Assembly (NCBI GenBank): GCA_019096065.1
Contig: JAGUCH010000002.1
Span: 136,501 to 200,500, forward strand
DNA from: Paracyclopina nana
Taxonomy: Eukaryota; Arthropoda; Copepoda; Cyclopoida; Cyclopettidae
DNA length: 64,000 nucleotides
Direction of reading: 5' to 3'
Shown: positions 36,501 to 58,188 of the stretch, piece by piece
Layout of the letters: the number at the start of each line of letters is the position of its first letter
How positions within the stretch are numbered: the stretch's first letter is position 1
The notes under the pieces: generated by a model
Told to the model about the DNA's origin: nothing
The model's input: the letters and a program-made list of their open reading frames with translations, nothing else
The model's database searches: none
Made by a program: the position numbers and the translations under genes

Positions 36501-37082
36501 ATCTATTTCTATCTAGTGCCGGTATGTAAAACGGGGCCGTTAAATAATTTGAAAAAGCCAGTGCAACTTTACAAACACGAGCTGGGCGGGCCATAAAGTA
36601 CTTTTATGTCCCCACATTAGCCTAAATTATACTAATCATATAGTTTATAGCCTGAGAATGACTTTTTTACGCAGGCTTTTTTTGGCGCCAATTGATGAGC
36701 GAGACCGGATGCGAGCCCGAAGCGTGGAACTTTTTCGCGGTCTGTGTCCCCATAGTGGTTTTTTTCGCGCCTTTTGGCTCTTTCCTAGCCTCACACTTCC
36801 ACAGACAAGTTTTGGCCACTCTTATCTACATTTTGGACACAATTGCCCTGGTAAAAAGCAAAGTCACCTCTCATTTGAAAACATTTTTATTTTTTATTTT
36901 TGCATTTTTAGGTCACTGCTCTCATTGTCATTCCAATGACTGCCAATCGAGGAATTCTCTGTGGTTGCCTCATTTTGGGCGGTTTTCTCTTCTTTGCTCT
37001 CATTTCGAAAGCTGGAGAAAGACTTTTGCTTTACCTAGATGAGCCCAAAAATGTGGAAAATTCTGTGAAAAACCTGGCTTAG
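33547..37082 (+). CDS. TauE/SafE (TSUP)-type membrane protein, complete copy
   Basis: Multi-pass membrane protein resembling the sulfite exporter TauE/SafE family; the substrate in animals is unknown to me. Exons: 33547-33604, 33663-33890, 34639-34746, 34806-35007, 35190-35345, 35398-35459, 36675-36850, 36912-37082; phases agree, 386 residues. It has a soluble N terminus of about 55 residues, then at least eight hydrophobic segments. The two pseudo-repeats characteristic of the family are visible: GMTSEGGGAVAFPVMTLALG followed by VARDFSLMIQSCGM, and GFIGGIFSAIAGSGVDI followed by PTSVVLMAINTCVG. Introns 2 and 6 are swollen by satellites. Its stop is 315 bp from that of the convergent kinase gene. 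Partial copies of this gene lie at 47953-48264 and 61331-61937. Confidence 0.82.
33955..34605. repeat. ~20-bp tandem repeats in TSUP intron 2, two subfamilies
   Basis: 33970-34260 is built of TTGCATGGCGCTGTTATGAG units; 34260-34605 of CGTGCCGCACGGCGCTGTCA units. Both share GGCGCTGT and a 20-bp period, so the second looks like a diverged, more GC-rich amplification of the first. A 100-residue open frame across the second part is a repeat artefact. Confidence 0.85.
35635..36545. repeat. ~154-bp satellite in TSUP intron 6, about 6 units
   Basis: GGTTCGGGCTG (or a close variant) recurs at 35785, 35938, 36091, 36247 and 36402, spacing 153-156 bp. Each unit contains TTTACAAAAAGGAACATTTC and GTATGTAAAACGGGG. 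The same array, expanded to at least twelve units, follows the third gene copy at 62090-64000. Confidence 0.93.
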
Positions 37083-37397
37083 TGAATGAAAACAAATAAA
37101 TAGGAATAAAAAATGTCCACAGATTTTACTTTAAAATAAGGAAGTTTTTGTCAGAGGTTTCTATCAATTTTCTAAATTTGATTTTTCTATATGTGATTTG
37201 GAATATAATTCAGTCATTGACAAAAATCAAATTAATGTTGCTGTACAACTTTCCTAGTGTGCACACTCGGCAACTTTTTAGGGTGAACTTTTTTCAGCCA
37301 CTTTATCCCACTGTGCTGAAAGCAATTTCCTGTTTCCAAGTGAATTACACATTTATTAGTCACCTTTCGAATATTTTGGCTTTCAATTATACTTTAT

Positions 37398-40300
37398 TCA
37401 GACTTTTTTCCACCAAAGTTTTGTTTCACCCATGATATCTTTGGTTGAAATATTGAGCACGATAAGCGTGTTTGGCTCATTTCCTTTACCAGGAAACCAC
37501 CATGGTGTGAATTGGATCACTTTGGTGTCTCCAGATGTTTGCTGTTTGTCCAAGTCAACAATTGCACCCAAGTGATCAACTCCATTGATTTGCATCAAAG
37601 CCACTTCTTCTCCAACACTTTCATCAAAGGAAAATTGAGTATTATAATAATTTCCAGCTTCCTTGAAGTACAAAAACACTTTTCCTTTCACATTTGCTCC
37701 TCTCCATTGGAACTTGCAGTTGGCCCAAAATTCAGCTTCATAGCCATCAGCGACTTCCTTGGCTCCCTTCAAGATGGGCACAATTTTCCATGGCCTGGAA
37801 TTCATGGTGGAAAAGCTGTGTTAGGTGTGATGTGAAAAAGAAACTGAGCATTTGCACCTTTCTGGCTTGTTGTACTCCACTTGGGCACAACCATAATCCT
37901 TGGCAGTGTAGACATAATTGCCATTATGCAAAATTGCCCATCCAAAGAAGTCAGGATGACCAAGAAGTTTAAATACTTCTTGTTGAAGTATTTTTGATGC
38001 ACTTGGTCTCACTGATGGTTCACTGACCATTGAGTAGAGTAGCTTGGCACAAGGATCAGGCAATGACTTGAATTGTTCAATCTCTGCTTGTAGAGCTGAA
38101 GGAGTGGAAGTTTTTCTTAACATTTGGAATGCAATGACTCCGAGTGAATACACATCACTGAGGTGATCAGCCCCACTTCCAATGTCTGGACAAGCATAGA
38201 ATCCGTCCTGGCAACCAAAGAAGCCGCCAATTTTGGGAATGCCCTCATCGGAAATTGTGATGTTTGAAGGCTGCAGGCAGCTGCAAAATAATCATTATTT
38301 GCATCAAACTACTAAAAGATTATTAACTGCTGCACATTATATGTGAAACCTTGTTAAAAGACTGCAATTTTCAATCAAGCTTGCAAAAATAAATAGAGAT
38401 ATATGCAAATAACCTTGCCTATTCCGGCAGCGCACACTGGCCCAAAAAACTTCAATTTGTACATTTTGGTCAAAATCTAAAGTTATATTTTTTTCACTTT
38501 TTTTGCATGAATATCATCAGTTTAAGCTCTAGCACACCCAAAATATTCTTTTGTAGTGGTAGCAGTATCATACCGCATAAATGAGTGCAATGTGGTTAAA
38601 AATGCGATTTTCATGCTCATCCAAAAAAGTCGCATTTGTGCAAAGTTGAATTTGCCCTTATCAACTTTTGCCCAAAAATTATTTTTTTGTGCTAAATGTG
38701 CATCTTTATCTACCAATTTACATTAATTTGTTCTCTTTTTTAAAAGAGAGCCTAAAAGTCATGCAAATTAGAAACCGAAAATTGATGCATCCACTGTGCA
38801 TGATTATAAGGCTCCACCATAGAAGCTATGATATGACGAAAAAATTTGTAACATACAAAAAAAGTCTGTTTAGCCCTATTTGCAATGCAAGGTTATTATG
38901 GTAGGGGCCAGATATCCAGCACACAGAATTCCCAAAATTGGCTCTTCTGCAACCAAAGCGCAACAATAAAACATAAAAATCCCAAAAGTTCAAGCGCGCA
39001 TTCAAACAGCATAGCCTAATTATTCAAATTACATATTTTTCACTTCTAGCTCAAAAAAGTTGACAAAATATGCTAGTTTCGGTTAGTTTTTGGCACTACA
39101 ATAACGGTCTAGTCACAACTAGAAGAAACAAATGCCAAAATGATACATTTTATGTGATTTTTGCTCCTACCTCAAATAAGTTGTCAAAAATAGACTAGTT
39201 TTGGTTAATTTTTGGCACAAGGAGAGCAGTCTTGTCAAAACTGGGTGTAACAAAGGCCAAAAATTGGCCAATTATTATCCACATTACACAGTTTTTGTTC
39301 CTAGCTATAAAAGGTTGCCATGAAATATGCTAGTTTCCATTATAAGCTTTTGGCACTAGGAGACCAGTCTTGTCACAACTAGGAGAAACAAAGGCCAAAA
39401 GAGTCTGCCAGTGCTAAATAAGCGTACCTTTCTTTGATGTTCCGGCCTTCAAGGTATTTGAGCCCTTCAAGGATTCCATGGATTAGTTTCCATGCCTCCA
39501 CACGAAATTGTCTTGTGTGAACTTGCGCATTTTCATTGATGAAATCTTGTAGAGTTCTGCCTTTGCAGAACTCTGTTGCTGTATAAAAGTGATCCCCCTC
39601 CATGGTATCCAGCTTTAAGAAGTCATGGCTCAGTACTCCATCTATTGAGTCAAGTAAGGCACTTGAAACTCCTTGTATTTGATTCAAAAGCTTTTTGGCC
39701 CAACCTTCACAGAAAATGCAATATGAAACAAATATCTTTGGTGACAACAGAATTTTGGCGACTTATTATACCTTTGGGGTTGGTTTGCTCCCAATCCATG
39801 ATGGTGCTGACCACGTTAGGATGTTTGCTTTTGCTTAACATTTTCATCTTTTGAAAGGTTGCTGATGGACCATCCCTCTTCGGTGATATTGTCACCACAT
39901 GCACCTTGCTTTGCCAAAGAGTGGCATTAATAATGAGGGTGTCTCCTTCCACCCTCACTATTTTGATTGGTTGAAACCAAGATGAGTCATCACTAGAAGC
40001 ACTGTTTTTCTGAAGGTGGAAAAGAATTTCACATCCCTCTGGCCTGTCGTTTGGCTCCTTGCTGAGCATCTTTTTCAGCAATTGAATGTCATCATCGGAT
40101 AATCCACGCAGCTCTTGAACATCAACAATTCTATCCTTAATAGGAACGGGGCTATGCAACATGGCAAATATGACACCAAGGCAGTAAATGTCTGTCTTTT
40201 TATCATGGTGCTTCTTTCCCTCCCGCATTTCAGGGCTCTGATACTGATTGGTACCAATACCAAGAGAGTGACTTTGATCTTCTGAATCTTGGACTTTGGC

Positions 40301-41926
40301 GAGTCCAAAATTGGCAACTTTGAGTTGTCCGTTCAGGCCAATGAGGACATTAGCAGGCTTCAAATCTCTGCAACAAAAAGCAGCCAGTCTTTTTGAGTCA
40401 TTAACAAAGCTAATCCCAACCAGAAATTTACAAGCTTATTTCCATAAGTTGTTGACTGGTGTTTTTGATTATACTAACATCCAAGGTATAGTTAATTTTT
40501 CATAAAGACATAAACTCTTTGCTGATGAAAGGTTCAAGCTCCACTGAGTGTTATTTTGGCAGTGGCCAGATATCCAGTGCACAGAACCCCCCAAAAAATC
40601 TCAAGTCTCCCTTCCCCATGTCCTCGTGTTATTGCTAGCTCGCTTCAGGGCGTGTGTGCGCCCGTTAACGCCAGCCCCCACAAACCAAATAAAAAATAGT
40701 TCCAATTTAATGTACAGTTAGCTCCAAAAATAACCCGGTGAGGGATCAGTAGTCATTATAGTAGTACCATTAGTCACATATATAAGTAGTGTTGATTTCT
40801 CCATTACGATACTTTCAAATACGTATTTTGAAATTTTAAGATACATTGTATATCTCATAGCTTCTGTATATGGTGTATATAGAAAAGGTGCTATGTATTT
40901 TTTTTATACCTCCATTACTTTAAAAGACATCAGCCTTTTTCCAACTTTAGCTTGTTTTAAAAATTGGAATACACCATGAGTGAAAAACCCTATATGGACT
41001 CTTTTTTTGCATTTTTGGTAAGTTAATGACAGTTTGAATATTGTGACTGCACTTTAAGAACACAGAATGAATGCCAAATAGAGCTGATTTTGCACACATC
41101 ATTTGTTGAGTTGAAAATAAAGCAGAATACTGATAACAAAATGACCTATTTTATCTGTCGGATACTTGATCCTAAAGCTAACAGTAACTTGAAAGTGTTT
41201 TGGCGGCAACTTTTTAAGGTAGGACAAAAAAGATTTGTCCGGCAATTTTGGCGAGTGCTCAGAATTTCTGGTAGGGATGTGAAGCAGTTGAATACCTGTG
41301 GATGATGTCATGAGAGTGGAGGTAGAAGAGACCTTTGCTCAGTTGGGAACAGTACTCCTTGCATTCTTGGTAGTTTACTTCACTGCGGTTCTTGATGTAA
41401 TCAGAGAGCGTGCTAGACTGACACACCTCAGTCGCAATGAAGGTGCATGGCTCATCATCAAGGTCTAGAAGCTGATCGTAATCACCTGGTGTTTTGCACT
41501 TTTCCAATCCAACTTCAATAGGAAAATCTTCAAAAAAAAAAAAATTTGATCAAATTGAAAATGTAATCATCAAGGATCCTCATACCGGATGGAGTTGTCT
41601 CCTTCCACGCTCTAAAGTACCTCAGCAAATTTGGATGGTCCAGTTTGCTGAGGATGTCAATCTCATGCTTAATGTATGTCATCATATACTCATACTGTGA
41701 ATCCTTGATGATTTTCACTGCATGTGTAGTGTTGTCTTCTCCCAAGACTTGGGCCTCAAGAACCATACCAAAAGATCCGGAACCAAGGATTGACACTGCC
41801 TTATACATGTCCACAAAAGTCAAGGAGCTGAGAAAAAGCATGTAAAATCAACTGCCCTAGGGATGTTCTACTACTAACCAAGGAATGTGGGATTAGGAAT
41901 TTCTCTTACCTTTCATCCGCCGCCAT
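37398..41926 (-). CDS. Tandem kinase-pseudokinase protein, copy 1 (PEK/GCN2-like N-terminal kinase)
   Basis: Exons on minus: 41926-41910, 41827-41586, 41527-41296, 40367-39772, 39704-39428, 38280-37858, 37794-37398; phases agree, 727 residues. Kinase 1 (about 10-275): glycine loop GSGSFGMV, Lys44 in AVKII, Glu61 in KHEIDIL, intact HRDLKPAN (Asp165), but the DFG motif reads NFG (Asn183), so metal binding may be impaired. The N-lobe run RYFRAWKE recalls eIF2-alpha kinases; this placement is tentative. Domain 2 (about 300-590) is a pseudokinase: no glycine loop, KERSCLQPSN in place of HRDLKPxN, GFFG in place of DFG. The last ~130 residues (exon 7) form an unrecognised, probably beta-rich domain (KGKVFLYFKEAG, TLIVLNISTKD). 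The stop codon overlaps a polyadenylation signal (TGAATAAA). An intron holds relics of the satellite/foldback family. Confidence 0.82.
38900..39415. repeat. Degenerate foldback/satellite relic in kinase intron 5 (copy 1)
   Basis: Starts with GGGGCCAGATATCCAGC, the terminal module of the 8.8-kb foldback element, and continues with three decayed ~158-bp satellite units (AATATGCTAGTTTC, TTTTTGGCACTA, GGAGACCAGTCTTGTCA). A second isolated terminal module (GGCAGTGGCCAGATATCCAG) sits at about 40558 in intron 3. Both are duplicated at 50093-50600 and about 51756. Confidence 0.75.
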
Positions 41927-42297
41927 TTTCGGTGCAATTTTCCTGGTGTGGTGTTTTTTTCAAGAATGCATCACTTGCCAGATTAGTGGCAATTGGCAGC
42001 TTTAACAAAGCTAGTGACTTTATATTCACATTGATACCCTGTTTAGATAGAGATAAGGAAAACGTTACCTAAGCATGGCTTTTTGCTTTGCAAATAAATG
42101 ATGTTGCCTTCACAAATGCAATGTAAAAAAAATAATTTTGGAGAGTGATTTTTCAAAATCCACGCAGGGAAAAACAAGCGAAATCGTCAGAGTCAACTTT
42201 CACAGAGCTGTAAGCTAAAAACCAATAAAAGCTGATTTTGAAATTTATCATGGTAGATGGCGCCACTGTAAGGTAGCACAGTTGTTGTGAATTTGGT

Positions 42298-44073: not shown

Positions 44074-46261
44074 ATGCCAACTTGTGCTGCAATCAATTGC
44101 CTGTCTGGGAGGTCAAAGGAGCATAAAGCTCAATTTTTCCCCTTTCCAACAACAGCCAGGAGGCTGAGGACCTGGTTGGAGGCCATGAGAGTGAAAAACT
44201 GGACACCTTTACCATCATCCAGGCTCTGCATCAAACACTTCACTGAGAGACATTTGGTGCCCATGGATGAAAACCTGGATGTTCTTGGCAAGCCTAAGCA
44301 GAAGCGCATGCTGAAGCCTAAGGCTTTCCCAACAATTTTCAACTTCAACAAAAAGTCATTGGTGAAACCTTCAAGGTAAGATTTGATTTGAAAAAAGATT
44401 GTGACCTTTCTCCAGCGCAAATCGATTTTTCGTTTTTGTTTTGTCAAAGGAACTTTTTTGCGCAGATTATTAAAAAAGTTGCGAAATTGCCGTGCGTCAA
44501 TTCCATAGCTCACATTAATAGCGGCAAAAAAGTGAAAGTGATTATTGCACAGCGGATTTGCCGATTTCTCGCACACGGAAAAAAGTCGCGAAATCAACGT
44601 AGTGTCCTTACTCCTTTTCTTGGACAGAGTTATCAATGGTGCAGTGGTAGGAATCGTTTTTGACTTGGTTTGGTTGGAAAAAAATTGTTGGTCGTAGGTC
44701 GGAAAAGTGGTCATTTTTGAAAATGACTAAAACTATCCACGTGGTTCAAAAAGCTGTTTTCATGCAAATAAGAAATTCCTCCATATTGCCAAAATCTCAT
44801 TTTCCACCAACAGTCAGCTTCTTTTTGGGAGCTCTTCTTAGCCATGAAGAAAGCTCAACTAAGTGAGAATTCATAGAAAAAGGCTGTTGACATCAAATGA
44901 CATTTAGCTATTATGGCTATGGTGTTAATCAGACCCCATGTTATGATCATTCAGCAAAATTGGGTTCTGAAATGTGCGGAATTGGGAGCTTAGAAAGTCA
45001 ATTTTTAACTTAGAGCCCTATGAAAATTGACTCCGACGATTTCACAAGGGATTTTGAACCACTGTGCTATCCAAAATAGGCACCTTAAACAAAAATAAAG
45101 CAAAAATTCCAATTTGACATGCACATTATTCCTTTTGGAAACAATCTTAGCCACAAATACTTTCAAAAAAGCTTAATTTCATAGGAAATATAAACTAAAG
45201 CTTGACTTAAATGAACAACAGCTTCTGGAGAACCAGGCTACTTTTTGCTCAGAGATGGGACATGAAAATAAAAATCATAATTTCATCAACCATTTTCATA
45301 AGTGACTAATTTTGTACGCCAAACATAAATTGGGTGAGTTTGTGCCGTTTTTGGTTAAGTGATGAGAAAAGTGGTCGTTTTGAAACATTTGGAAAAATTG
45401 TGATTGCAAAACTGGTCGTTTTGGGCCAAAAAGGTGGTTGGAAGCCTAAAAATCCGTTGACAATTCTGTAATCTTGTAGTAGTTTGGAATCAAAAGTTAT
45501 GGAAGCTTTTAGTTTTGTTCAATAACTGCTAAATTGTCATTCAAGTGAATTCACCCAAGTCAACTTTTGCCCCAAAAGTACTGCTTCCGAGCCAAATTTG
45601 GATCTTTATCTGTCAATTTACATTAATTTTGGACTCTTTTGGTAGCCTAAAGCACATACTATACAAATCATTTTGCGCTGCCTCTAAGAGGCCTACAGAC
45701 AAGATATTTACTCTTGCAAATTATCCTATCTGGACCTTTTAAATTGTTTTAATTTTTTCATCTTGTTTCAGGAAAAAGCCTACTGAACGTGACTCCACCA
45801 TTAGTAGGAAATCAAATTCTGCACCAGATTTGATTGGTGAGTCATCAATGGTGTTGCTGGACCATCCTTATGCTGCCAGGGAATCCCTGGGTGACTGGCC
45901 TGTGGTTGCTGGGTCTCCTCCACCTTCACCTGTGCCTCAACCTCTGCCTCAGCCTCTGCCTCAACCTATAGAAGTTGAAGGGAGTCACAGCTATGAGGAA
46001 CTCTCTGCACTGCAGAGCCTCATTGCTTCTCTTCGTCACGACTTGGAAGAGGCCAAAAATGAGAACTCAAGACTGTTGAATGCTCTTGGGAAGGTTTTCA
46101 ATCACGACCAAGTCTTAGTTCTCAAGGAAGTGGTGAAGCGCCCCAAAAAGTGGTCAGACCAAACTCTGGAGAAAGCCCTGCACATCAGGCATGTTGCTGG
46201 GTCCACTGGTAATACACACTTTCAAAAATTACTCTTTTCCATCAGAAGCAAAAAATCATGA
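44074..46261 (+). CDS. THAP-domain protein with P-element-transposase-like segment, apparently truncated
   Basis: Exons 44074-44375 and 45772 to either 46208 (donor GTAATA) or a stop at 46261; the latter gives 263 residues. Residues 1-90 are a THAP zinc finger: MPTCAAINC, FPFP, a conserved Trp, LCIKHF and AFPTIFNF, giving the C2CH set. The start at 44074 rather than 44065 places the usual MPxxC at the N terminus. Then comes a proline-rich linker (PQPLPQPLPQP), a coiled coil (LRHDLEEAKNENSRLLNAL) and RPKKWSDQTLEKALHIRHVAGSTG split over two runs, which resembles the region after the coiled coil in THAP9/P-element transposases. The catalytic domain is absent: directly after, the sequence becomes a 71-bp satellite. 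Probably a transposase remnant or 5' exons of a broken gene. Confidence 0.7.
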
Positions 46262-47945
46262 TTTATTTCTGTTTCAATTGGAGGCTGATGACTTTCATGA
46301 TGATTGGCATGCTGGCAAAATCTCTGGGAGGACTTCCAATATTCAATGAGCTCCAAAAATGACTTTCAAGATGATTGGCATGCTGGCAAAATCCCTGGGA
46401 GGACTTCCAATATTCAATGAGCTTCAAAAATGACTTTCAAGATGATTGAGATTCTGGCAAAATCTCAAGGAGGCTTTCCAATATTCCATGAGCCTCAGAA
46501 AATACTTTCACGATGATTGAGATTCTGGCAAAATCTCTGGAAGGCTTTTCAATATTCCATGAGCCCGAGAAATGACTTTCAAGATGATTGAGACCCTTGC
46601 CAAAATCTCCGGAAGGCTTTCCAATATTTCATGAGCCTCAGAAAATACTTTCATGTTGATTAAGATTGTGGCAAAATCTCTGGAAGGCTTTTTAATATTC
46701 CACGATCCTGAGAAATGACTTTCAAGATGATTGAGACCCTTGCAAAATCTCCGGAAGGCTTTCCAATATTCCATGGACCTCAGAAATAGCTTTGAAGATG
46801 ATTGAGATCCTTGCCAAATCTCCGGAAGCCTTTCCTATATTACATGAGCCTGAGAAATGACTTTCAAGATGATTGAGACCCTTGCAAAATCTCCGGAAGG
46901 CTTTCCAATATTCCATGGACCTCAGAAATAGCTTTGAAGATGATTGAGATCCTTGCAAAATCTCCAGAAGCCTTTCCTATATTACATGAGCCTGAAAAAT
47001 GACTTTCAAGATGATTGAGATCATTAAAAAATCTCCTGAAGGCTTTCCAATATTCCATGGACCCCAGAAATAACTTTGAAGATGATTGAGATTCTGGCAA
47101 AATCTCTGGAAGGCCTTCCAATATTCCATGGACCTCAGAAATAGCCTTGAAGATGATTGAGATCCTTGCAAAATCTCCGGAAGCCTTGATTGGCATGCTG
47201 GCAAAATCTCTGGGAGGACTTCCAATATTCCATTGACCTCAGAAAAAACTTTGAAGATGATTGAGACCCTTGCAAAATCTCTGGAAGGCCTTCCAATATT
47301 CCATGGACCTCAGAAATAGCTTTGAAGATGATTGAGATCCTTCCAATATCTCTTGAAGGCTTTCTAATATTACATGAGCCTGAGAAATGACTTTCAAGAT
47401 GATTGTGATCCTGGCAAAATCTCAATGAGGCTTTCCAATATTCCATGAGCCTCAGAAAATACTTTCACGATGAATGAGATTCTGGCAAAATCTCTGGAAG
47501 GCCTTCCAATATTCCATGGACCTCAGAAATAGCCTTGAAGATGATAGAGATCCTTGCAAAATCTCCGGACGCCTTTTCAATATTACATGAGCCTGAGAAA
47601 TAACTTTGAAGATGATTGAGATTCTGTCAAAATCTCTAGAAGGCTTTCCAATATTCCATGGACCTCAGAAATAGCTTTGAAGATGAATGAGATTCTGGCA
47701 AAATCTCTGCAAGCCTTTCCAATATTCCATTGACCTCAGAAAAAACTTTGAAGATGAATGAGACTCTGGCAAAATCTCTGGAAGGCTTTTCAATATTCCA
47801 TGGACCTCAGAAATAGCTTCTAAGATGATTGAGATCCTTGAAAAATCTCTGGAAGGCTTTCCAATATTCCATGGACCTCAGAAATAGCTTTGAAGATGAT
47901 TGAGATCCTTGCAAAATCTCCGGAAGCCTTTCCAATTTTACATGA
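46262..47945. repeat. ~71-bp satellite
   Basis: About 23 units of the type AAGATGATTGAGATCCTTGC, AAAATCTC, GGAAGGC, TTCCAATATTCCATGGACCT. Because 71 is not a multiple of three, open frames on the minus strand cycle through three translations; they are not genes. The array starts right after the THAP open frame and ends at the truncated TSUP copy. Confidence 0.95.
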
Positions 47946-47952
47946 GCCATTT

Positions 47953-48264
47953 CTTTTGGCTCTTTCCTAGCCTCACACTTCCACAGACAAGTTTTGGCCG
48001 CGCTCATCTACATTTTGGACACAATTGCCCTGGTAAAAAGCAAAGTCACCTCTCATTTGAAAACATTTTTATTTTTTATTTTTGCATTTTTAGATCACTG
48101 CTCTCATTGTCATTCCAATGACTGCCAATCGAGGAATTCTCTGTGGTTGCCTCATTTTGGGCGGTTTTCTCTTCTTTGCTCTCATTTCGAAAGCTGGAGA
48201 AAGACTTTTGCTTTACCTAGATGAGCCCAAAAATGTGGAAAATTCTGTGAAAAACCTGGCTTAG
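47953..48264 (+). pseudogene. TSUP gene copy 2, only the last two exons remain
   Basis: Homology to copy 1 begins abruptly inside exon 7 (about 47953, GGCTCTTTCCTAGCC) at the edge of the 71-bp satellite. Exon 7 remnant ends 48032, exon 8 is 48094-48264, with intact splice sites, reading frame and stop. Val at the start of exon 8 is Ile here. There is no 5' part, so it cannot make a TSUP protein unless exons lie elsewhere. Confidence 0.85.
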
Positions 48265-48580
48265 TGAATGAAAACAAATAAATAGGAACAAAAAATGTCC
48301 ACAGATTTTACTTTAAAATAAGGAAGTTTTTTGTCAGAGGTTTCTATCAATTTTCTAAATTTGATTTTTCTATATGTGATTTGGAATATAATTCAGTCAT
48401 TGACAAAAATCAAATTAATGTTGCTGTACAACTTTCCTAGTGTGCACACTCGGCAACTTTTTAGGGCGAACTTTTTTCAGCCACTTTATCCCACTGTGCT
48501 GAAAGCAATTTCCTGTTTCCAAGTGAATCACACATTTATTAGTCACCTTTCGAATATTTTGGCTTTCAATTAAACTTTAT

Positions 48581-51500
48581 TCAGATTTTTTTCCACCAAA
48601 GTTTTGTTTCACCCATGATATCTTTGGTTGAAATATTGAGCGCGATAAGCGTGTTTGGCTCATTTTCTTCACCAGGAAACCATAATGGCGTGAATTGGAT
48701 CACTTTGGTGTCTCCAGATTTTTGCTGTTTGTCCAAGTCAACAATTGCACCCAAGTGCTCAACTCCATTGATTTGCATAAAAGCCACTTCTTCTCCAACA
48801 CTTTCATCAAAGGAAAATTGAGTACTATAATAAGTTCCAGCTTCCTTGATGTACAAAAACACTTTTCCTTTCACATTTGCTCCTCTCCATTGGAACTTGC
48901 AGTTGGCCCAAGTTTGAGCTTCATAGCCATCAGCGACTTCCTTGGCTCCATTCGAGATGGGCACAATTTTCCATGGCCTGGAATTCATGGTGGAAAAGCT
49001 GTGTTAGGTGTGATGTGAAAAAGAAATTGAGCATTTGCACCTTTCTGGCTTGTTGTACTCCACTTGGGCACAACCATAATCCTTGGCAGTGTAGACATAA
49101 TTGCCATTATGCCAAATTGCCCATCCATGGAAGTCAGGATGACAAAGAAGTGCGAATACTTCATGTTGAAGTATTTGTGATGCACTTGGTCTCACTGATG
49201 GTTCACTGACCATTGAGTAGAGTAGCTTGCAACAAGGATCAGTCCATGACTTGAATCGTTCAATCTCTGCTTGTAGAGCTGAAGGAGTGGAAGTTTTTTC
49301 AAACATTTGGAATGCAATGACTCCGAGTGAATACACATCACTGAGGTGATCAGCCCCACTTCCAATGTCTGGACATGCATAGAATCCGTCCTGGCAACCA
49401 AAGAAGCCGCCAATTTTGGGAATGCCCTCATCGGAAATTGTGATGTTTGAAGGCTGCAGGCAGCTGCAAAATAATCATTATTTGCATCAAACTACTAAAA
49501 GATTATTAACTGCTGCACATTATATGTGAAACCTTGTTAAAAGACTGCAATTTTCAATCAAGCTTGCAAAAATAAATAGAGATATATGCAAATAACCTTG
49601 CCTATTCCGGCAGCGCACACTGGCCCAAAAAACTTCAATTTGTACATTTTGGTCAAAATCTAAAGTTATATTTTTTTCACTTTTTTTGCATGAATATCAT
49701 CAGTTTAAGCTCTAGCACACCCAAAATATTCTTTTGTAGTGGTAGCAGTATCATACCGCATAAATGAGTGCAATGTGGTTAAAAATGCAATTTTCATGCT
49801 CATCCCAAAAAAGTCGCATTTGTGCAAAGTTGAATTGGCCCTTATCAACTTTTGCCCAAAAATTATTTTTTTTGTGCTAAATGTGCATCTTTATCTACCA
49901 ATTTACATTAATTTGTTCTCTTTTTTAAAAGAGAGCCTAGAAGTCATGCAAATTAGAAACCAAAAAATTGACGCATCCACTGTGCATGAATATAAGGCTC
50001 CACCATTAGAAGCTATGATTTGACAAAAAAATTTGTTACTTACAAAAAAAGTCTGTTTAGACCTAATTGCAATGAAGGGTTATTATGGCAGGGGCCAGAT
50101 ATCCAGCGCACAGAATTCCCGAAATTGGCTCTTGGGCAACCAAAGAGGGCAAGCACAACAATAAAACATAGAAATCCCAAAAGTTCAAGCGCGCATTCAA
50201 ACAGCATAGCCTAATTATTCAAATTACATATTTTTCACTTCTAGCTCAAAAAAGTTGCCAAAATATGTTAGTTCCGGTTAGTTTTTGGCACTACAATAAC
50301 GGTCTAGTCACAACTAGAAGAAACAAATGCCAAAATGATACATTTTATGTGATTTTTGCTCCTACCTCAAATAAGTTGTCAAAAATAGACTAGTTTTGGT
50401 TAATTTTTGGCACAAGGAGAGCAGTCTTGTCAAAACTGGGTGTAACAAAGGCCAAAAATTGGCCAATTATTATCCACATTACACAGTTTTTGTTCCTAGC
50501 TATAAAAGGTTGCCATGAAATATGCTAGTTTCCATTATAAGCTTTTGGCACTAGGAGACCAGTCTTGTCACAACTAGGAGAAACAAAGGCCAAAAGAGTC
50601 TGCCAGTGCTAAATAAGCGTACCTTTCTTTGATGTTCTGGTTGACTAGGAATTTGAGCCCTTCAAGGATTCCGTGGATTAGTTTCCATGCCTCCACACGA
50701 AATTGTCTTGTGTCAACTTGCGCATTTTCATTGATGAAATCTTGTAGAGTTCTGCCTTTGCAGAACTCTGTTGCCGTATAAAAGTAATCCCCCTCCATGG
50801 TATCCAGCTTTAAGAAGTCAAGGCTCAGTACTCCATCTATTGAGTCAAGTAAGGCAGTTGAAACTCCTTGTATTTGATTCAAAAGCTTTTTGGCCCAACC
50901 TTGGTAGAAAATGCAATATGAAACAATTATCTTAGGTGACAACAGAATTTTGGCGACTTATTATACCTTTGGGGTTGGTTTGCTCCCAATCCATGATGGT
51001 GCTGACCACGTTAGGATGTTTGCTTTGGCTCAACTTTTTCATCTTTTGTTGAAAGGTTGCTGATGGACCATCCCTCTTCGGTGATATTGTCACCACATGC
51101 ACCTTGCTTTGCCAAATCTTGGCATTAATAATGAGGGTGTCTCCTTCCACCCTCACTATTTTGATTGGTTGAAACCAAGATGAGTCATCACTAGAAGCAC
51201 TGTTTTTCTGAAGGTGGAAAAGAATTTCACATCCCTCTGGCCTGTCGTTTGGCTCCTTGCTGAGCATCTTTTCAGCAATTGAATGTCATCATCGGATAAT
51301 CCACGCAGCTCTTGAACATCAACAATTCTATCCTTAATAGGAACGGGGCTATGCAACATGGCAAATATGACACCAAGGCAGTAAATGTCTGTCTTTTTAT
51401 CATGGTGCTTCTTTCCCTCCCGCATTTCAGGGCTCTGATACTGATTGGTACCAATACCAAGAGAGTGACTTTGATCTTCTGAATCTTGGACTTTGGCGAG

Positions 51501-53126
51501 TCCAAAATTGGCAACTTTGAGTTGTCCGTTCAGGCCAATGAGGACATTAGCAGGCTTCAAAGCGCTCCAACGAAAAAGCAGCCAGTCTTTTTGAGTCCTT
51601 AACAAAGCTAATCCCAACCAGAAAATTACAAGCTTATTTACATCAGTTGATGATTGGTGTTTTTGATTATGCTAACATCCAAGGTATAGTTAATTTTTCA
51701 TAAAGACATAAACTCTTTGCTGATGAAAGGTTCAAGCTCCACTGAGTGTTATTTTGGCAGTGGCCAGATATCCAGTGCACAGAATCCCCCAAAAAGTCTC
51801 AAGTCTCCCTTCCCCATGTCCTCGTGTTATTGCTAGCTCGCTTCAGGGCGTGTGTGCGCCCGTTAACGCCAGCCCCCACAAACCAAATAAAAAATAGTTC
51901 CAATTTAATGTACAGTTAGCTCCAAAAATAACCCGGTGAGGGATCAGTAGTCATTATAGTAGTACCATTAGTCACATATATAAGTAGTGTTGATTTCTCC
52001 ATTACGATACTTTCAAATACGTATTTTGAAATTTTAAGATACATTGTATATCTCATAGCTTCTGTATATGGTGTATATAGAAAAGGTGCTATGTATTTTT
52101 TTTATACCTCCATTACTTTAAAAGACATCAGCCTTTTTCCAACTTTAGCTTGTTTTAAAAATTGGAATACACCATGAGTGAAAAACCCTATATGGACTCT
52201 TTTTTTGCATTTTTGGTAAGTTAATGACAGTTTGAATATTGTGACTGCACTTTAAGAACACAGAATGAATGCCAAATAGAGCTGATTTTGCACACATCAT
52301 TTGTTGAGTTGAAAATAAAGCAGAATACTGATAACAAAATGACCTATTTTATCTGTCGGATACTTGATCCTAAAGCTAACAGTAACTTGAAAGTGTTTTG
52401 GCGGCAACTTTTTAAGGTAGGACAAAAAAGATTTGTCCGGCAATTTTGGCGAGTGCTCAGAATTTCTGGTAGGGATGTGAAGCAGTTGAATACCTGTGGA
52501 TGATGTCATGAGAGTGGAGGTAGAAGAGACCTTTGCTCAGTTGGGAACAGTACTCCTTGCATTCTTGGTAGTTTACTTCACTGCGGTTCTTGATGTAATC
52601 AGAGAGCGTGCTAGACTGACACACCTCAGTCGCAATGAAGGTGCATGGCTCATCATCAAGGTCTAGAAGCTGATCGTAATCACCTGGTGTTTTGCACTTT
52701 TCCAATCCAACTTCAATAGGAAAATCTTCAAAAAAAAAAAAAAATTTGATCAAATTGAAAATGTAATCATCAAGGATCCTCATACCGGATGGAGTTGTCT
52801 CCTTCCACGCTCTAAAGTACCTCAGCAAATTTGGATGGTCCAGTTTGCTGAGGATGTCAATCTCATGCTTAATGTATGTCATCATATACTCATACTGTGA
52901 ATCCTTGATGATTTTCACTGCATGTGTAGTGTTGTCTTCTCCCAAGACTTGGGCCTCAAGAACCATACCAAAAGATCCGGAACCAAGGATTGACACTGCC
53001 TTATACATGTCCACAAAAGTCAAGGAGCTGAGAAAAAGCATGTAAAATCAACTGCCCTAGGGATGTTCTACTACTAACCAAGGAATGTGGGATTAGGAAT
53101 TTCTCTTACCTTTCATCCGCCGCCAT
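48581..53126 (-). pseudogene. Tandem kinase-pseudokinase gene, copy 2 (frameshift, HRD lost)
   Basis: All seven exons are present: 53126-53110, 53027-52786, 52725-52494, 51564-50967, 50899-50623, 49463-49041, 48977-48581. Exons 1-3 appear identical to copy 1. Exon 4 begins CGCTTTGAAG instead of AGATTTGAAG, changing HRDLKPAN to HSALKPAN and removing the catalytic Asp. Exon 4 also lacks one T in a homopolymer near 51271 (CATCTTTTC against CATCTTTTTC), shifting frame in kinase 1, and has a 3-bp insertion (an extra Gln) near 51052. Exons 6-7 are open and differ from copy 1 mostly by amino-acid changes. A pseudogene by strict reading; if the missing T is a sequencing error it would encode a catalytically dead protein. 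Confidence 0.7.
50093..50600. repeat. Degenerate foldback/satellite relic in kinase intron 5 (copy 2)
   Basis: Counterpart of 38900-39415, starting GGGGCCAGATATCCAGCGCA. Its terminal module is slightly closer to the 8.8-kb element (CGCACAGAATTCCCGAAATT) than that of copy 1. Confidence 0.7.
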
Positions 53127-53584: not shown

Positions 53585-56500
53585 TCCTACTAAAAGGCAC
53601 ACAATGCCCACAATTGGCACACAATGCCCACAATACCCACAAGGCACACAACCGGCACACAATTACTAAAAGGCACACATCGAGTTAAACAATAAAAAAT
53701 TTATGAATTCTAAAAGAAAGTTTTTAGCTTAGAAATGTGCCTTTTTAAAAATACAAGGAATCACAATTTAGCTAATATTATTAAACATAAGATAATTTGA
53801 TGCAGCTTCCAAAAATGTAAAAAAAAAATTCTGACTTTCCTTCGCACACAATGATGGCACACATTGGCGCACAATGGCACACAAAATTAACAACCCAAGC
53901 ACATGATCCAATTAGTTTGCTTTTTTACTCCATGTGTGCCTTTAAGTAATTGTGTGCCATCATGGCACACAATGGCACACAATGGCACACAATGGTACAC
54001 AATGGTACACAATGGCACACAAAGGCACACAAAGGCACACATTGGCACACAATGGGCCACAATGGCACACAATGGGCCACAATGGCACACAATGGCCCAC
54101 AATGGCTCACAGTTGCACATAATGGCACACAATGATGGCACACAATGGCCCACAATGGCGCACAATGATGGCACACAATGGACGGTTGAAACGGCAGCCT
54201 TTTGTACAACTCACTACATAAGGCTTGCTGCAAATCAAAGTCAGAAAATTATTGCATTTACATTTTCTGGCATTGCTTTGCTGAGATAATGCCAAAATTT
54301 CGGCCATTACAGCTAAATCAATTGTTTCAATTGTTGTTAACAACAAAAGCACACAAAAGCACATATTGGCACACAATGATGGCACACATCGGCACACAAT
54401 GGCACATAATGGCACACAATGGCACACAACGGCACACAATGATGGAAAACTAATAGCACACTTTTGTTTTTAGCTTAGCTGTGTGCCAAATATGAAATTA
54501 GCTTTTAAAATTATAAAGAATAATAATTTGGCTTTTATTATTTAATTGAAAAAAAGATACTTTGGGAGAGCTTCCAAAAATATAAACAGAATAATTTTCT
54601 GACTTTGCTTAGCTGAGATAATGAGATAATTACCGCTAAATCCATTGTTATTAACAACCCAAGCACATGATCCAATTAGTTTGCTTTTTTACTCTTTGTG
54701 TGCCTTTTAGAAATTGTGTGCCATCATGGCACACAATGGCACACAATGGCACACAATGGCACACAAAGGCACACAATGGGCCACAATGACACACAATGGC
54801 CCACAATGGCTCACAGTTGCACATAATGGCTCACAATGGCCCACAATGGCGCACAATGATGGCACACATCGGCACACAATGTCACACAATGGCACACAAC
54901 AGCACCCAATGATGGAAAACTAATAGCACACTTTTGTGACCACTTTTGTGACCACTTTTGTGACCACTTTTGTGATTACTTTTCTGACCACAAATGGCTA
55001 ACAATGACGGCACACAAAGACTCACGATGATGGCACACAATGGCAGACAATGGCACACAATAGCATACAACGGCACACAAAGGCACACAATGGCACACAA
55101 TGGAAGGTGGTTGCCTGTTTTTAGCTAAGCTGTGTACCTAATATGAAATTAGCTTTTAAAGTTATAAAGAATTATAATTTTGTGTAATCTTATTTTACAA
55201 AAAATAAAGATAATTTGATGCAGTTTCCGAAAATGTAAAAAAAATAATTTTCTGACTTTGCTTTGTTCAGATAATGCCAAAATTCGGGCAATTACTGCTG
55301 AGACCTTAGTGTGCTTGTTGTGTGCCAACATGAAAGTTGCTTTTAAAAATACAAAGAATTAATATTCGGCTTCCACTATTTAACATAAAATAAAGATAAT
55401 TTGATGCAGTTACTGAAAATGAAAACTGAATAATTTTCTGATTTTGCTTTGCTGAGATAATGCCAAAATTCGGGCAATTACCGCTGAGACCTTAGTGTGC
55501 TTGTTGTGTGCCAACATGAAAGTTGCTTTTAAAAATACAAAGAATTAATATTCGGCTTCCACTATTTAACATACAATATAGATAATTTGATGCAGTTTCT
55601 GAAAATGATAACTGAATTATTTTCTGATTTTGCTTTCCTGAGATAATGCCAAAATTCGGGCTATTACCGCTGAGACCGTAGTGTGCTTGTTGTGTGCCAA
55701 CATGAAAGTTGCTTTTAAAAATACAAAGAATTAATATTCGGCTTCCACTATTTAACATAAAATATAGATAATTTGATGCAGTTTCTGAAAATGATAACTG
55801 AAAAATTTTCTGATTTTGCTTTGTTGAGATAATGCCAAAATTCGGGCAATTACCGCTGATACCGTAGTGTGCTTGTTGTGTGCCAACATGAAAGTTGCTT
55901 TAAAAAATATAAGGAATTAAAATTCGGCTTTCACTATTGACATAAAATAAAGATAATTTGATGCAGCTTCCGAAAATGTAAACTGAATAATTTTCTGACT
56001 TTGCTTTGTTCAGATAATGCCAAACTTCGGGCAATTACCGCTGAGACCGTAGTGTGCTTGTTGTGTGCTAACATGAAAGTTGCTTTTAAAAATACAAAGA
56101 ATTAAAATTCCGCTTTCACTATTTAACATACATTAAAGATAATAATGCAGTTTCAGAAAATGTAAAAAAATAATTTTCTGACTTTGCTTTGCTGAGATAT
56201 TGCAAAAATTCGGGCAATTACCTCTGAGACCTTTGTGCGCTTGTTGTGTGCCAACATGAAAATTGCTTTTAAAAATTATAAAGAATTAAAATTTGGCTTT
56301 TGTTATTTAACAAACAATAAAGATAATTTGATGCAACTTCCATTTTTGGACTTTGATTTGCTGAGATAATGCCAAAATTCGGGCAATTAATCCAATGTTG
56401 CTAAAGTATCACACAACCCAAGCACACAATGGCTCACAATGGCCCACAATGGCACACAATGATGGCACATAATGGCACACAACGGCACACAATGGCCCAC

Positions 56501-58188
56501 AATGGCACACAATGATGGCACACAATGGAACACAATGATGGCACACAATGGCACACAATGGCACACAATGGCACACAATGGCACACAATGGCACACAATG
56601 GCACACAATGGCCCACAATGGCCCACAATGGCAGTAATTGCCCGACTTTTTGCGTTATCTTATCAAAGCAAAGTCAGAAAATTGATTTGTTTACATTTTC
56701 AGAATTAAATTCGCACAAAAAAAGTCACAAGAGTGGTCACAAGAGCAGTCGCAAAAGTGGTCGCAAAAGTGTGCTATTAGTTTGCCATCATTGTGTGCCA
56801 TTGTGTGCTTTATTTGTTAACAACAATTGATTTAGCTGTAATTGCCTGAATTTGTGCATTATCTCAGCAAAGCAAAATCAGAAAAATAATTTGAAAAAAT
56901 TTTTGGAAACTGAATCAAATTATTATTACTTTAGGCCAATTTCATATTATCGAAGTCAAGCTAACGCAAGCTAAGCTAGGTTCTTTGGAGGCTAATATCT
57001 CAGCAAATACTGAGTGTATTGGCACCAAATTTGGTAGGATTCATCAAAATGTCAACCAATAGCTGCGTTCCAAATTTGGTTAAGTTCCGAGGCCATTTAG
57101 AGGAGGTCATTTTCTAAGCAAAGCTAGCTTTTCTTTTTAGGCAGGTAAAGTCTGCCTATGGAAGGGATCCTTAGATTCATTTGAAATTTGGTATGGTGGC
57201 TTATTAGGCTCTTCTTATGAATCCTACCAAATTTGGTGCCAATCGACTTAATAGTTGCTGAGCTATAAGCCTCAAAAGTACCTTGCTTTTTTTAGCTTGT
57301 CTATGTGAAATTGGCCTTTTATGTTACATAGTGAAAGCCAAATTTTAATTCTTTGTTGTGTGCCATTGTGTGCCTTTGTGGGCCATTGTGGGCCGTTGTG
57401 TGCCATTGTGTGTCTTTGTGTGCCATTGTGGGCCATTGTGTGCCATCATTGTGTGCCATTGTGTGCTTTATTTGTTAACAACAATTGCTTTTGCTGTAAT
57501 TGCCTGAATTTTTGCATTATCTCAGCAAAGCAAAGTCAGAAAAATTATTTGTTTACATTTTTGGAAACTGCATCAAATTATCTTTATTTTATGTTTCATA
57601 GTGAAAGCCAAATTTTAATTCCTTTTATTTTTAAAAGCAACTTTCATGTTGGCACACAACAAGCACACAAAGGTCGTAGCAGTAATTGCCCGAATTTTTG
57701 CATTATCTCAGCAAAGCAAAGTCAGAAAATTAATTTGTTTACATTTTTGGAAACTGCATCAAATTATCTTAATTTTTATTAAATAGTGAAAGCCATTGTG
57801 TGCCATTGTTTGCCGATATGTGCCATCATTGTGCGCAAATGTGTGCTTTTTTTGTTAACACCAATTGAAACAATTGATCTAGCTGTAATTGCCGAAATTT
57901 TGGTATTATCTCAGCAAGGCAATGTCAGTAAATTAAATAGCTCAAATTATGTTTTGTTAAATAAAATAAGCAAAATTGTAATTCCTTATATTTTTAAAAA
58001 AGTACTTTTATATTTGGCACACATCTAAGCTAAAAACATGCAACCACTTTCCAACTTACTTTTACGAATCAATTATTTTTTTTTTAAATTTGATGTGCGC
58101 CTTTTAGTAATTGTGTGCCGGTTGTGTGCCTTGTGGGTGGTGTGGGCATTGTGTGCCAATTGTGGGCATTGTGTGCCTTTTAGTAGGA
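53585..58188. mobile_element. 4.6-kb foldback element built from GGCACACAATG repeats
   Basis: Terminal inverted repeats of about 100 bp: the left starts TCCTACTAAAAGGCACACAA at 53585, and the right, read inward from 58188, starts identically, with two or three mismatches to about 53691/58090. Inside, the 11-bp word GGCACACAATG is tandemly repeated on the left (53840-56640) and mostly as its reverse complement on the right (56790-57850). Left-arm segments such as TTTGATGCAG and TCTGACTTTG reappear inverted on the right. 55100-56390 holds about six ~186-bp units. No transposase is seen. It lies about 460 bp upstream of kinase copy 2. Copy 1 has about 23 unrelated bp at the same point (43006-43028). 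Confidence 0.8.
56934..57316. mobile_element. ~380-bp inverted-repeat element at the turn of the 4.6-kb foldback
   Basis: Ends GGCCAATTTCATA and TGTGAAATTGGCC are inverted, and internally GGCACCAAATTTGGTAGGAT (about 57020) is mirrored by ATCCTACCAAATTTGGTGCC (about 57221). It differs in sequence from the surrounding repeats and lies at the switch from left-arm to right-arm orientation, so it is either the loop of the foldback or a nested MITE. Confidence 0.6.

What the first reader, a model, noticed from the sequence alone, without database searches (positions are those of the whole stretch)
48581..49463. Kinase copies differ mainly by amino-acid-changing substitutions in pseudokinase and C-terminal domain
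Comparing exon 6 (37858-38280 with 49041-49463) by eye, I see about a dozen residue changes and only about one silent change (for example Leu to Trp, Phe to His, Lys to Ala, Gly to Cys), often as adjacent double changes. Exon 7 shows a similar excess (about 15 changes in 132 residues). Exons 1-3 appear identical and parts of the intervening intron are unchanged. This pattern suggests diversifying selection on the non-catalytic domains, as in host-pathogen conflict genes. The defence idea is inference only.
Basis: partly seen in the sequence, partly recalled or inferred. Interest (0 to 1): 0.8.

Follow-up and report, generated by a model that had tools for sequence, protein, structure and literature searches.

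The report
Fast-diversifying PKR-like tandem kinase genes
Five closely related copies of an apparently animal gene that joins a stress-kinase domain to a degenerate kinase domain have changed unusually fast at particular protein positions in the degenerate end, a pattern typical of proteins that recognise or dodge changing partners such as pathogens.

Summary
The finding is exons 7 and 6 of copy B of a seven-exon minus-strand gene (A 37398-41926, B 48581-53126). A and B differ by 12 residues in exon 6 and 15 in exon 7, against 2 synonymous changes each; exons 1-3 are identical. Pairwise dN/dS alone is not significant. With the three other full copies found in the genome, codon site models on exons 5-7 give 2dlnL 91 for 19% of codons at omega about 9; exons 3-4 give 0. 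This survives double substitutions (54.7) and exceeds all null simulations with recombination (60 and 72 runs). Introns 5-6 have no three-state site; exon 6-7 first and second positions have 8. Pseudogene drift is refuted, although B and C each carry one exon-4 frameshift. Domain 1 is eIF2alpha-kinase-like (PKR, GCN2, PERK best), domain 2 a pseudokinase, the C-terminal domain unmatched. A, B and C have lost the DFG Asp of domain 1; D and E keep it. Heads and tails recombine as modules. Best reading: a fast-evolving recognition tail on an eIF2alpha-kinase-type head, probably defensive; defence is inference.

The parts
48581..48977 (-). Copy B exon 7: C-terminal domain of no known family; open frame
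   Evidence: Gene model; no stops; site model for exon 7
49041..49463 (-). Copy B exon 6: C-lobe of the pseudokinase and tail; open frame
50623..50899 (-). Copy B exon 5: middle of the pseudokinase; open frame; includes codon 425, five residues in five copies
50967..51564 (-). Copy B exon 4: rest of kinase domain 1 and start of the pseudokinase; 1-nt deletion at codon 262; HSA for HRD; NFG for DFG
52494..52725 (-). Copy B exon 3: kinase domain 1, identical to A
52786..53027 (-). Copy B exon 2: kinase domain 1, identical to A
53110..53126 (-). Copy B exon 1 with start codon
37398..41926 (-). Copy A, intact gene of 727 residues; exons 41910-41926, 41586-41827, 41296-41527, 39772-40367, 39428-39704, 37858-38280, 37398-37794
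   Evidence: kinase match; PDB relatives
49464..50622 (-). Copy B intron 5, the neutral yardstick (24 substitutions in 1147 sites against A)

Best explanation
These are five recent copies of one gene. Each encodes an eIF2alpha-kinase-type domain, a second, degenerate kinase domain of the same stock (a pseudokinase) and a C-terminal, perhaps all-beta domain. Shown by sequence: about a fifth of the codons in exons 5-7 change amino acid far faster than neutral, about half are frozen, introns 5 and 6 are quieter than first and second codon positions, and exons 3-4 show no such class. Also shown: head and tail have very different divergence (A-D dS about 0.37 against 0.05), so tails have moved between copies as a unit. 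Inferred: the tail is a recognition surface (sensor or decoy) that follows a changing partner, most likely pathogen molecules. Inferred: in copies with an intact head (D, E) the tail controls phosphorylation of eIF2alpha and so translation, while copies with a damaged head (A, B, C) act as decoys or regulators, or are decaying.
For: Site models, exons 5-7: M2a over M1a 2dlnL 91.0, 19% of codons at omega 9.3, 51% near 0; exons 3-4: 0. With double substitutions: 54.7. Null simulations with recombination: 60 of 60 at or below 11.3 against 90.4; with recombination and double substitutions 72 of 72 at or below 12.0 against 54.7 (double-substitution fit) and at or below 36.8 against 90.4 (standard fit). 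Introns 5+6 in A-D: 97 of 1191 sites vary, 0 with three states; exon 6-7 first and second positions: 65 of 532 vary, 8 with three states (Fisher 0.009 and 8e-5). Five residues in five copies at codons 425 and 647. No stop in exons 5-7 of the five copies, 7.2 expected for 156 random changes. Kinase family. Modules.
Against: No pair is significant for exons 6-7 by counting (lowest Fisher p 0.08). Mean omega is not above 1 once double substitutions are modelled (exons 5-7 p 0.15). Exon 5 alone is not significant with double substitutions (p 0.09). Using only A, D and E with double substitutions the test gives 12.35 (p 0.002), and A with D 8.6 (p 0.014): modest, and close to the top of the five-copy null range (12.0). 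The standard test is inflated under the recombination and double-substitution null (median 8.3), so its chi-square p values should not be used. Two of five copies are frameshifted. Clustering of differences also occurs in intron 5. No orthologs, population, expression or infection data. eIF2alpha as substrate untested. Models of exons 6 and 7 too poor to place sites on a surface.
Confidence: 0.5

Rival explanations
1. Adaptive divergence without pathogens: the copies are under positive selection, but for new partners in stress signalling, reproduction or self-recognition.
For: The sequence tests detect selection, not its cause. Two head types with different motif states would fit division of labour.
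Against: Many states at the same codons (five residues in five copies at 425 and 647) look more like a chase than like settling into a few new roles; the eIF2alpha-kinase relation points to stress or antiviral work. Both are indirect.
Confidence: 0.33
2. Pseudogene drift: the copies are dead and change at random.
For: B and C each have a 1-nt deletion in exon 4; catalytic motifs of domain 1 are damaged in A, B and C.
Against: A and D are open throughout, and E with an inferred donor; no stops in exons 5-7, 7.2 expected; about half of the codons are frozen and a fifth are far above neutral; internal length changes in exons 5-7 keep the frame (the one 4-nt loss, in C and D, lies at the very end of exon 7).
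Confidence: 0.04
3. Artefact of multi-nucleotide mutation, gene conversion from divergent donors, or assembly error, which mimics a fast site class.
For: Double substitutions are strongly supported in exons 5-7 (delta about 0.085; M0 lnL improves by about 31); exon trees conflict; differences also cluster in intron 5; the frameshifts are in short runs (A5 to A4 in B, G3 to G2 in C) and could be read errors.
Against: The signal survives both processes in simulation, is absent from exons 3-4 and favours first and second codon positions over introns.
Confidence: 0.06
4. The organism is itself a parasite and these are its own fast-evolving effectors, like rhoptry pseudokinases of Toxoplasma (recalled).
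For: Tandem, fast-evolving pseudokinases are known there (recalled; PMC3682881 seen only in a listing); the species here is unidentified.
Against: The N-terminus (MAADESSLTFVDMYKAVSIL) has no evident signal peptide by eye; both kinase domains are of eIF2alpha-kinase stock.
Confidence: 0.06

Closest known systems
PKR (EIF2AK2) and the eIF2alpha-kinase family
   Same: Best solved relative of domain 1 is PKR (2e-37 for D; 6.9e-31 for A); for D, 12 of the best 14 rows are named PKR, GCN2 or PERK, the other two bear generic kinase names. PKR's kinase domain carries many positively selected sites, including helix alphaG (PMC11556786, passages).
   Different: No double-stranded-RNA-binding domain found; a second degenerate kinase domain and an unmatched C-terminal domain; selection lies in that second half, not in the head.
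GCN2
   Same: An eIF2alpha kinase that also holds a pseudokinase (recalled; D domain 1 weakly matches residues 345-515 of entry 9f58 besides its kinase).
   Different: Order here is kinase first, pseudokinase second; Pfam finds only kinase models in the 727 residues.
Plant tandem kinase-pseudokinase resistance proteins (WTK1/Yr15)
   Same: Kinase and pseudokinase in tandem; a decoy role was proposed there as one possibility (PMC6170490, passages).
   Different: Plant proteins of other kinase families; independent origin (inference).
Toxoplasma rhoptry pseudokinases such as ROP5 (recalled)
   Same: Expanded, fast-evolving pseudokinases (recalled).
   Different: Secreted parasite proteins of another kinase group.

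Membership tests
eIF2alpha kinase family | Kinase domain closest in sequence to eIF2alpha kinases | tested here: met
   12 of the best 14 PDB rows for D domain 1 named PKR, GCN2 or PERK; best 2e-37, first kinase named otherwise 3.9e-26. PDB sequences only; no tree was built.
eIF2alpha kinase family | Intact Lys, HRD and DFG in the kinase domain | tested here: inconclusive
   Met in D and E; A and C have NFG; B has NFG and HSA
eIF2alpha kinase family | Phosphorylates eIF2alpha at Ser51 | not testable with these tools
   Needs an assay
PKR | Double-stranded-RNA-binding domains | tested here: not met
   Pfam on the A protein lists only kinase models at E up to 1
Pseudokinase (domain 2) | Kinase homology with lost catalytic residues | tested here: met
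   PERK 8.5e-10 and GCN2 4.6e-9; ESC at HRD, GGF at DFG and Thr at the VAIK Lys in the alignment to domain 1
Genes under diversifying selection | Class of codons with omega above 1, robust to double substitutions and recombination | tested here: met
   modest when only A, D and E are used
Host-pathogen conflict genes | Infection phenotype or known antagonist | not testable with these tools
   No biological data available
Plant tandem kinase-pseudokinase proteins | Common descent with plant receptor-like kinases | not tested
   Considered for how it works only

The most novel reading that the evidence does not exclude
An animal counterpart of plant tandem kinase-pseudokinase immune receptors: an eIF2alpha-kinase head that can stop translation, fused to a hypervariable pseudokinase and C-terminal tail that acts as bait or sensor, with head and tail modules reshuffled between neighbouring genes so that new tails meet live or damaged heads.
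Probability: 0.25. Interest if true: 0.87.

Novelty: new variant of a known kind. Interest (0 to 1): 0.64.

Why it matters
PKR is the best-known eIF2alpha kinase in an arms race, and fast sites are mapped in its catalytic domain. Here an apparently animal genome holds a separate eIF2alpha-kinase-like family in which the fast sites lie in a degenerate second kinase domain and in a C-terminal domain of no known family, while the kinase head is constrained. If confirmed, it would suggest that animals, like cereals, have used a pseudokinase joined to a kinase as an evolvable recognition unit, and it offers a compact five-gene system in which live and damaged heads carry different tails.

Tried and rejected
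Rejected: pseudogene drift, and a pure mutation, recombination or assembly artefact (see rivals). Pairwise counting did not reach significance for exons 6-7. Structure prediction of exon 7 and exon 6 (two window sequences each) gave mean pLDDT 47.2 and 42.7, too low for fold searches or surface mapping, so no fold search was run. The C-terminal domain gave nothing in Pfam (0 of 6 members at E up to 10) or NCBIfam, one insignificant PDB sequence match (E 0.036 and 0.37), and no confirmed relative in one viral-contig scan (66 pattern matches, none confirmed). The species was not identified: COX1 has no match in the assembly, and the 18S family search ended in a machine error and was not repeated. 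A residue-by-residue match between selected pseudokinase codons and PKR's selected residues was considered by eye only; I make no statistical claim. Nine literature searches listed no paper on an animal eIF2alpha-kinase tandem with a diversifying pseudokinase; the listings were capped (6 to 12 shown, of up to 815 papers) and the library holds open-licence papers only. PMC11556786 and PMC6170490 were seen as passages; all other papers as listings.

Full report
What is there. The window is G000:C2:136501-200500 of a 92-Mb genome in 10 contigs. It looks animal (THAP domain 9e-17, RING finger and palmitoyl-thioesterase readings nearby; that THAP points to animals is general knowledge), but the species is unknown to me. 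The finding lies on the last two exons of a seven-exon gene on the minus strand. Copy A (37398-41926) has six GT-AG introns and codes for 727 residues. Copy B (48581-53126) has the same exons, but a 1-nt deletion in exon 4 breaks its frame; exons 5-7 stay open. Searches of the genome with DNA and with exon proteins find five full copies, all on C2: A, B, C (about 201.7-207.3 kb, minus), D (about 367.8-372.6 kb, plus) and E (about 375.0-381.6 kb, plus). They also find a fragment near 71 kb and a distant paralog on C3 at 3.540-3.550 Mb, with one kinase domain and, 8 kb on, the same C-terminal domain. That those two C3 pieces are one gene is inferred. The search tool scores only its best candidates, so further distant copies are not excluded.

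Intactness. A is open with a stop. D is open as joined; its last residues and stop are read from the printed sequence. E is open if exon 5 uses a shifted donor, which I infer from the printed sequence. C has a 1-nt deletion in exon 4 (one TGA). D and E have an extra intron of 522 and 515 bp inside exon 2.

What it encodes. Domain 1 is eIF2alpha-kinase-like: for A the best solved relative is PKR at 6.9e-31; for D it is PKR at 2e-37, and 12 of the best 14 rows are named PKR, GCN2 or PERK. Domain 2 finds PERK and GCN2 first (8.5e-10, 4.6e-9) but has ESC at HRD, GGF at DFG and Thr at the VAIK Lys, so it is a pseudokinase. In domain 1, D and E have HRD and DFG; A and C have NFG; B has NFG and HSA. 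That these changes impair catalysis is general knowledge, not tested here. The exon-7 domain has no significant match in Pfam, NCBIfam or PDB sequences; a low-confidence model is all-beta.

Check of the observation. A against B: exon 6 has 16 nonsynonymous and 2 synonymous changes (12 residues), exon 7 has 16 and 2 (15 residues), and exons 1-3 are identical. All ten pairs of the five copies have dN/dS above 1 for exons 6-7 (1.20 to 2.15), but none is significant (Fisher p 0.08 to 0.33); for exon 6 alone one of ten reaches p 0.03.

Test of selection. I wrote a codon likelihood (GY94, F3x4, 15 unrooted trees). Exons 5-7, 359 codons, best tree: mean omega 1.61 (p 0.016 against 1); M2a over M1a 2dlnL 91.0, with 51% of codons near 0, 30% at 1 and 19% at 9.3. 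On the second-best tree the values are 1.38 (p 0.10) and 79.2. With double substitutions allowed, best tree: mean 1.38 (p 0.15), M2a over M1a 54.7; second tree 43.3. Exons 6-7: 79.2 and 37.9. Exon 6 alone: 47.1 and 18.3. Exon 7: 32.6 and 19.5. Exon 5: 6.4 (p 0.04) and 4.8 (p 0.09). Exons 3-4, 276 codons: 0 and 0, mean omega 0.46 and 0.37 (exon 2 was left out there because D and E do not align over its second half). After leaving out further codons with poor alignment or gaps in D or E, 349 codons remain, with 2dlnL 90.4 and 54.7.

Controls. Copies recombine, so chi-square p values are unreliable. In 60 simulations without a fast class, with a random tree every 30 codons, the largest 2dlnL was 11.3. 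In 72 finished of 80 planned simulations that also contain double substitutions, the standard test was inflated (median 8.3, maximum 36.8) and the double-substitution test reached at most 12.0; observed 90.4 and 54.7. By subsets of copies, standard and double-substitution: A, D, E 38.4 and 12.35; A, D 23.7 and 8.6; A-D 53.3 and 30.7; A-C 26.6 and 13.2. The signal is strong in the full set and modest in the copies with intact frames.

Model-free support. In A-D, introns 5 and 6 vary at 97 of 1191 sites, never with three states. First and second codon positions of exons 6-7 vary at 65 of 532, 8 with three states; third positions at 22 of 267, 1 with three states (Fisher 0.009 and 8e-5 for first and second positions against introns). 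At least 156 changes in exons 5-7 should have made about 7 stops if random; there are none (P 0.0006). Against a purely selective reading of the clustered changes: neighbours within 2 nt exceed chance in exons 5-7 for 6 of 6 pairs among A-D, but also in intron 5 for 4 of 6 (p below 0.05), so a mutation or conversion process contributes.

Where. With posterior above 0.9 there are 29 of 349 codons (9 in exon 5, 9 in exon 6, 11 in exon 7; naive posteriors), and 27 under the double-substitution model. In order A-E: 425 HDYPN, 510 REQAR, 528 LWFSS, 572 LWLER, 647 NSHTA, 694 WLGFL. In the pseudokinase they lie before the degenerate catalytic loop, after the alphaF region, between alphaG and alphaH, and on the tail behind the fold (alignment; helix names by homology from general knowledge). 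In PKR, helix alphaG and neighbouring residues include positively selected sites (PMC11556786, passages).

Modules and exchange. A-D synonymous divergence is 0.37 in codons 85-290 (head) but 0.08 in 296-456 and 0.05 in 457-721. A, B and C share one head type, D and E another. Exons 5, 6 and 7 prefer different trees (9.3 and 13.9 lnL lost for exons 5 and 7 on the tree of exon 6). Intron 5 has 18 sites shared by B and D against 6 by C and D, while exon 6 has 2 and 9. Tails have therefore moved between heads, by conversion or unequal crossing over.

Mechanism and odds. I think the tail is a recognition surface under changing pressure and the head a translation-stopping kinase in D and E. I put about 0.93 on real positive selection, about 0.55 on pathogens as its cause, and about 0.5 on the whole picture. 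Shown: architecture, sequence family of both kinase domains, selection, module exchange, motif loss. Inferred: recognition, defence, eIF2alpha as substrate, decoy role of A-C.

Novelty. Both ingredients are known (an eIF2alpha kinase in an arms race, PMC11556786, passages; tandem kinase-pseudokinase resistance proteins in plants, PMC6170490, passages). Their union, with selection confined to the pseudokinase half and an unmatched C-terminal domain, appeared in none of the nine literature listings (capped lists). I call it a new variant of a known kind.

Noticed in passing
L008 and L009 (copies D and E), inside exon 2: An extra intron of 522 and 515 bp with a GTATGAG donor and TATAG acceptor, absent from A, B and C; by eye its 3' end resembles sequence upstream of the gene (window about 42220-42290), so it may be a recent intron gain from a repeat.
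   Followed up: partly
L029, L030, L031 (C4: 9.40-9.53 Mb): Four further kinase genes of 35-38% identity to domain 1, a second local expansion: L029 and L030 are 85% alike over 2234 bp, the two in L031 81% over 1017 bp; no C-terminal domain was found in the stretches searched.
   Followed up: partly
L024 7055-8318 and L025 6612-7007 (C3: 3.540-3.550 Mb): A paralog with a single kinase domain followed by the same tail motif, and 8 kb on the same C-terminal domain: a possible picture of the ancestor before the kinase domain doubled.
   Followed up: partly
L010 about 4963-5274 (C2: 70962-71273): A fragment in which exon 2 runs directly into a piece of exon 7.
   Followed up: no
window 47950-48300: By eye, a stretch from the 3' part of a neighbouring gene (about 36780-37120) recurs here beside copy B, so the duplicated unit is larger than the kinase gene.
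   Followed up: no
copies D and E, codons about 197-260 (L008, L009): D and E are identical in codons 1-80 and 261-300 but differ at 9-11 of about 60 bases per 20 codons across 201-260, from activation loop to alphaG of domain 1: probably another conversion tract, from an unseen donor.
   Followed up: partly
window 46260-47950 and 53600-57900: By eye, long arrays of degenerate repeats lie between and beside the copies and may promote unequal exchange.
   Followed up: no
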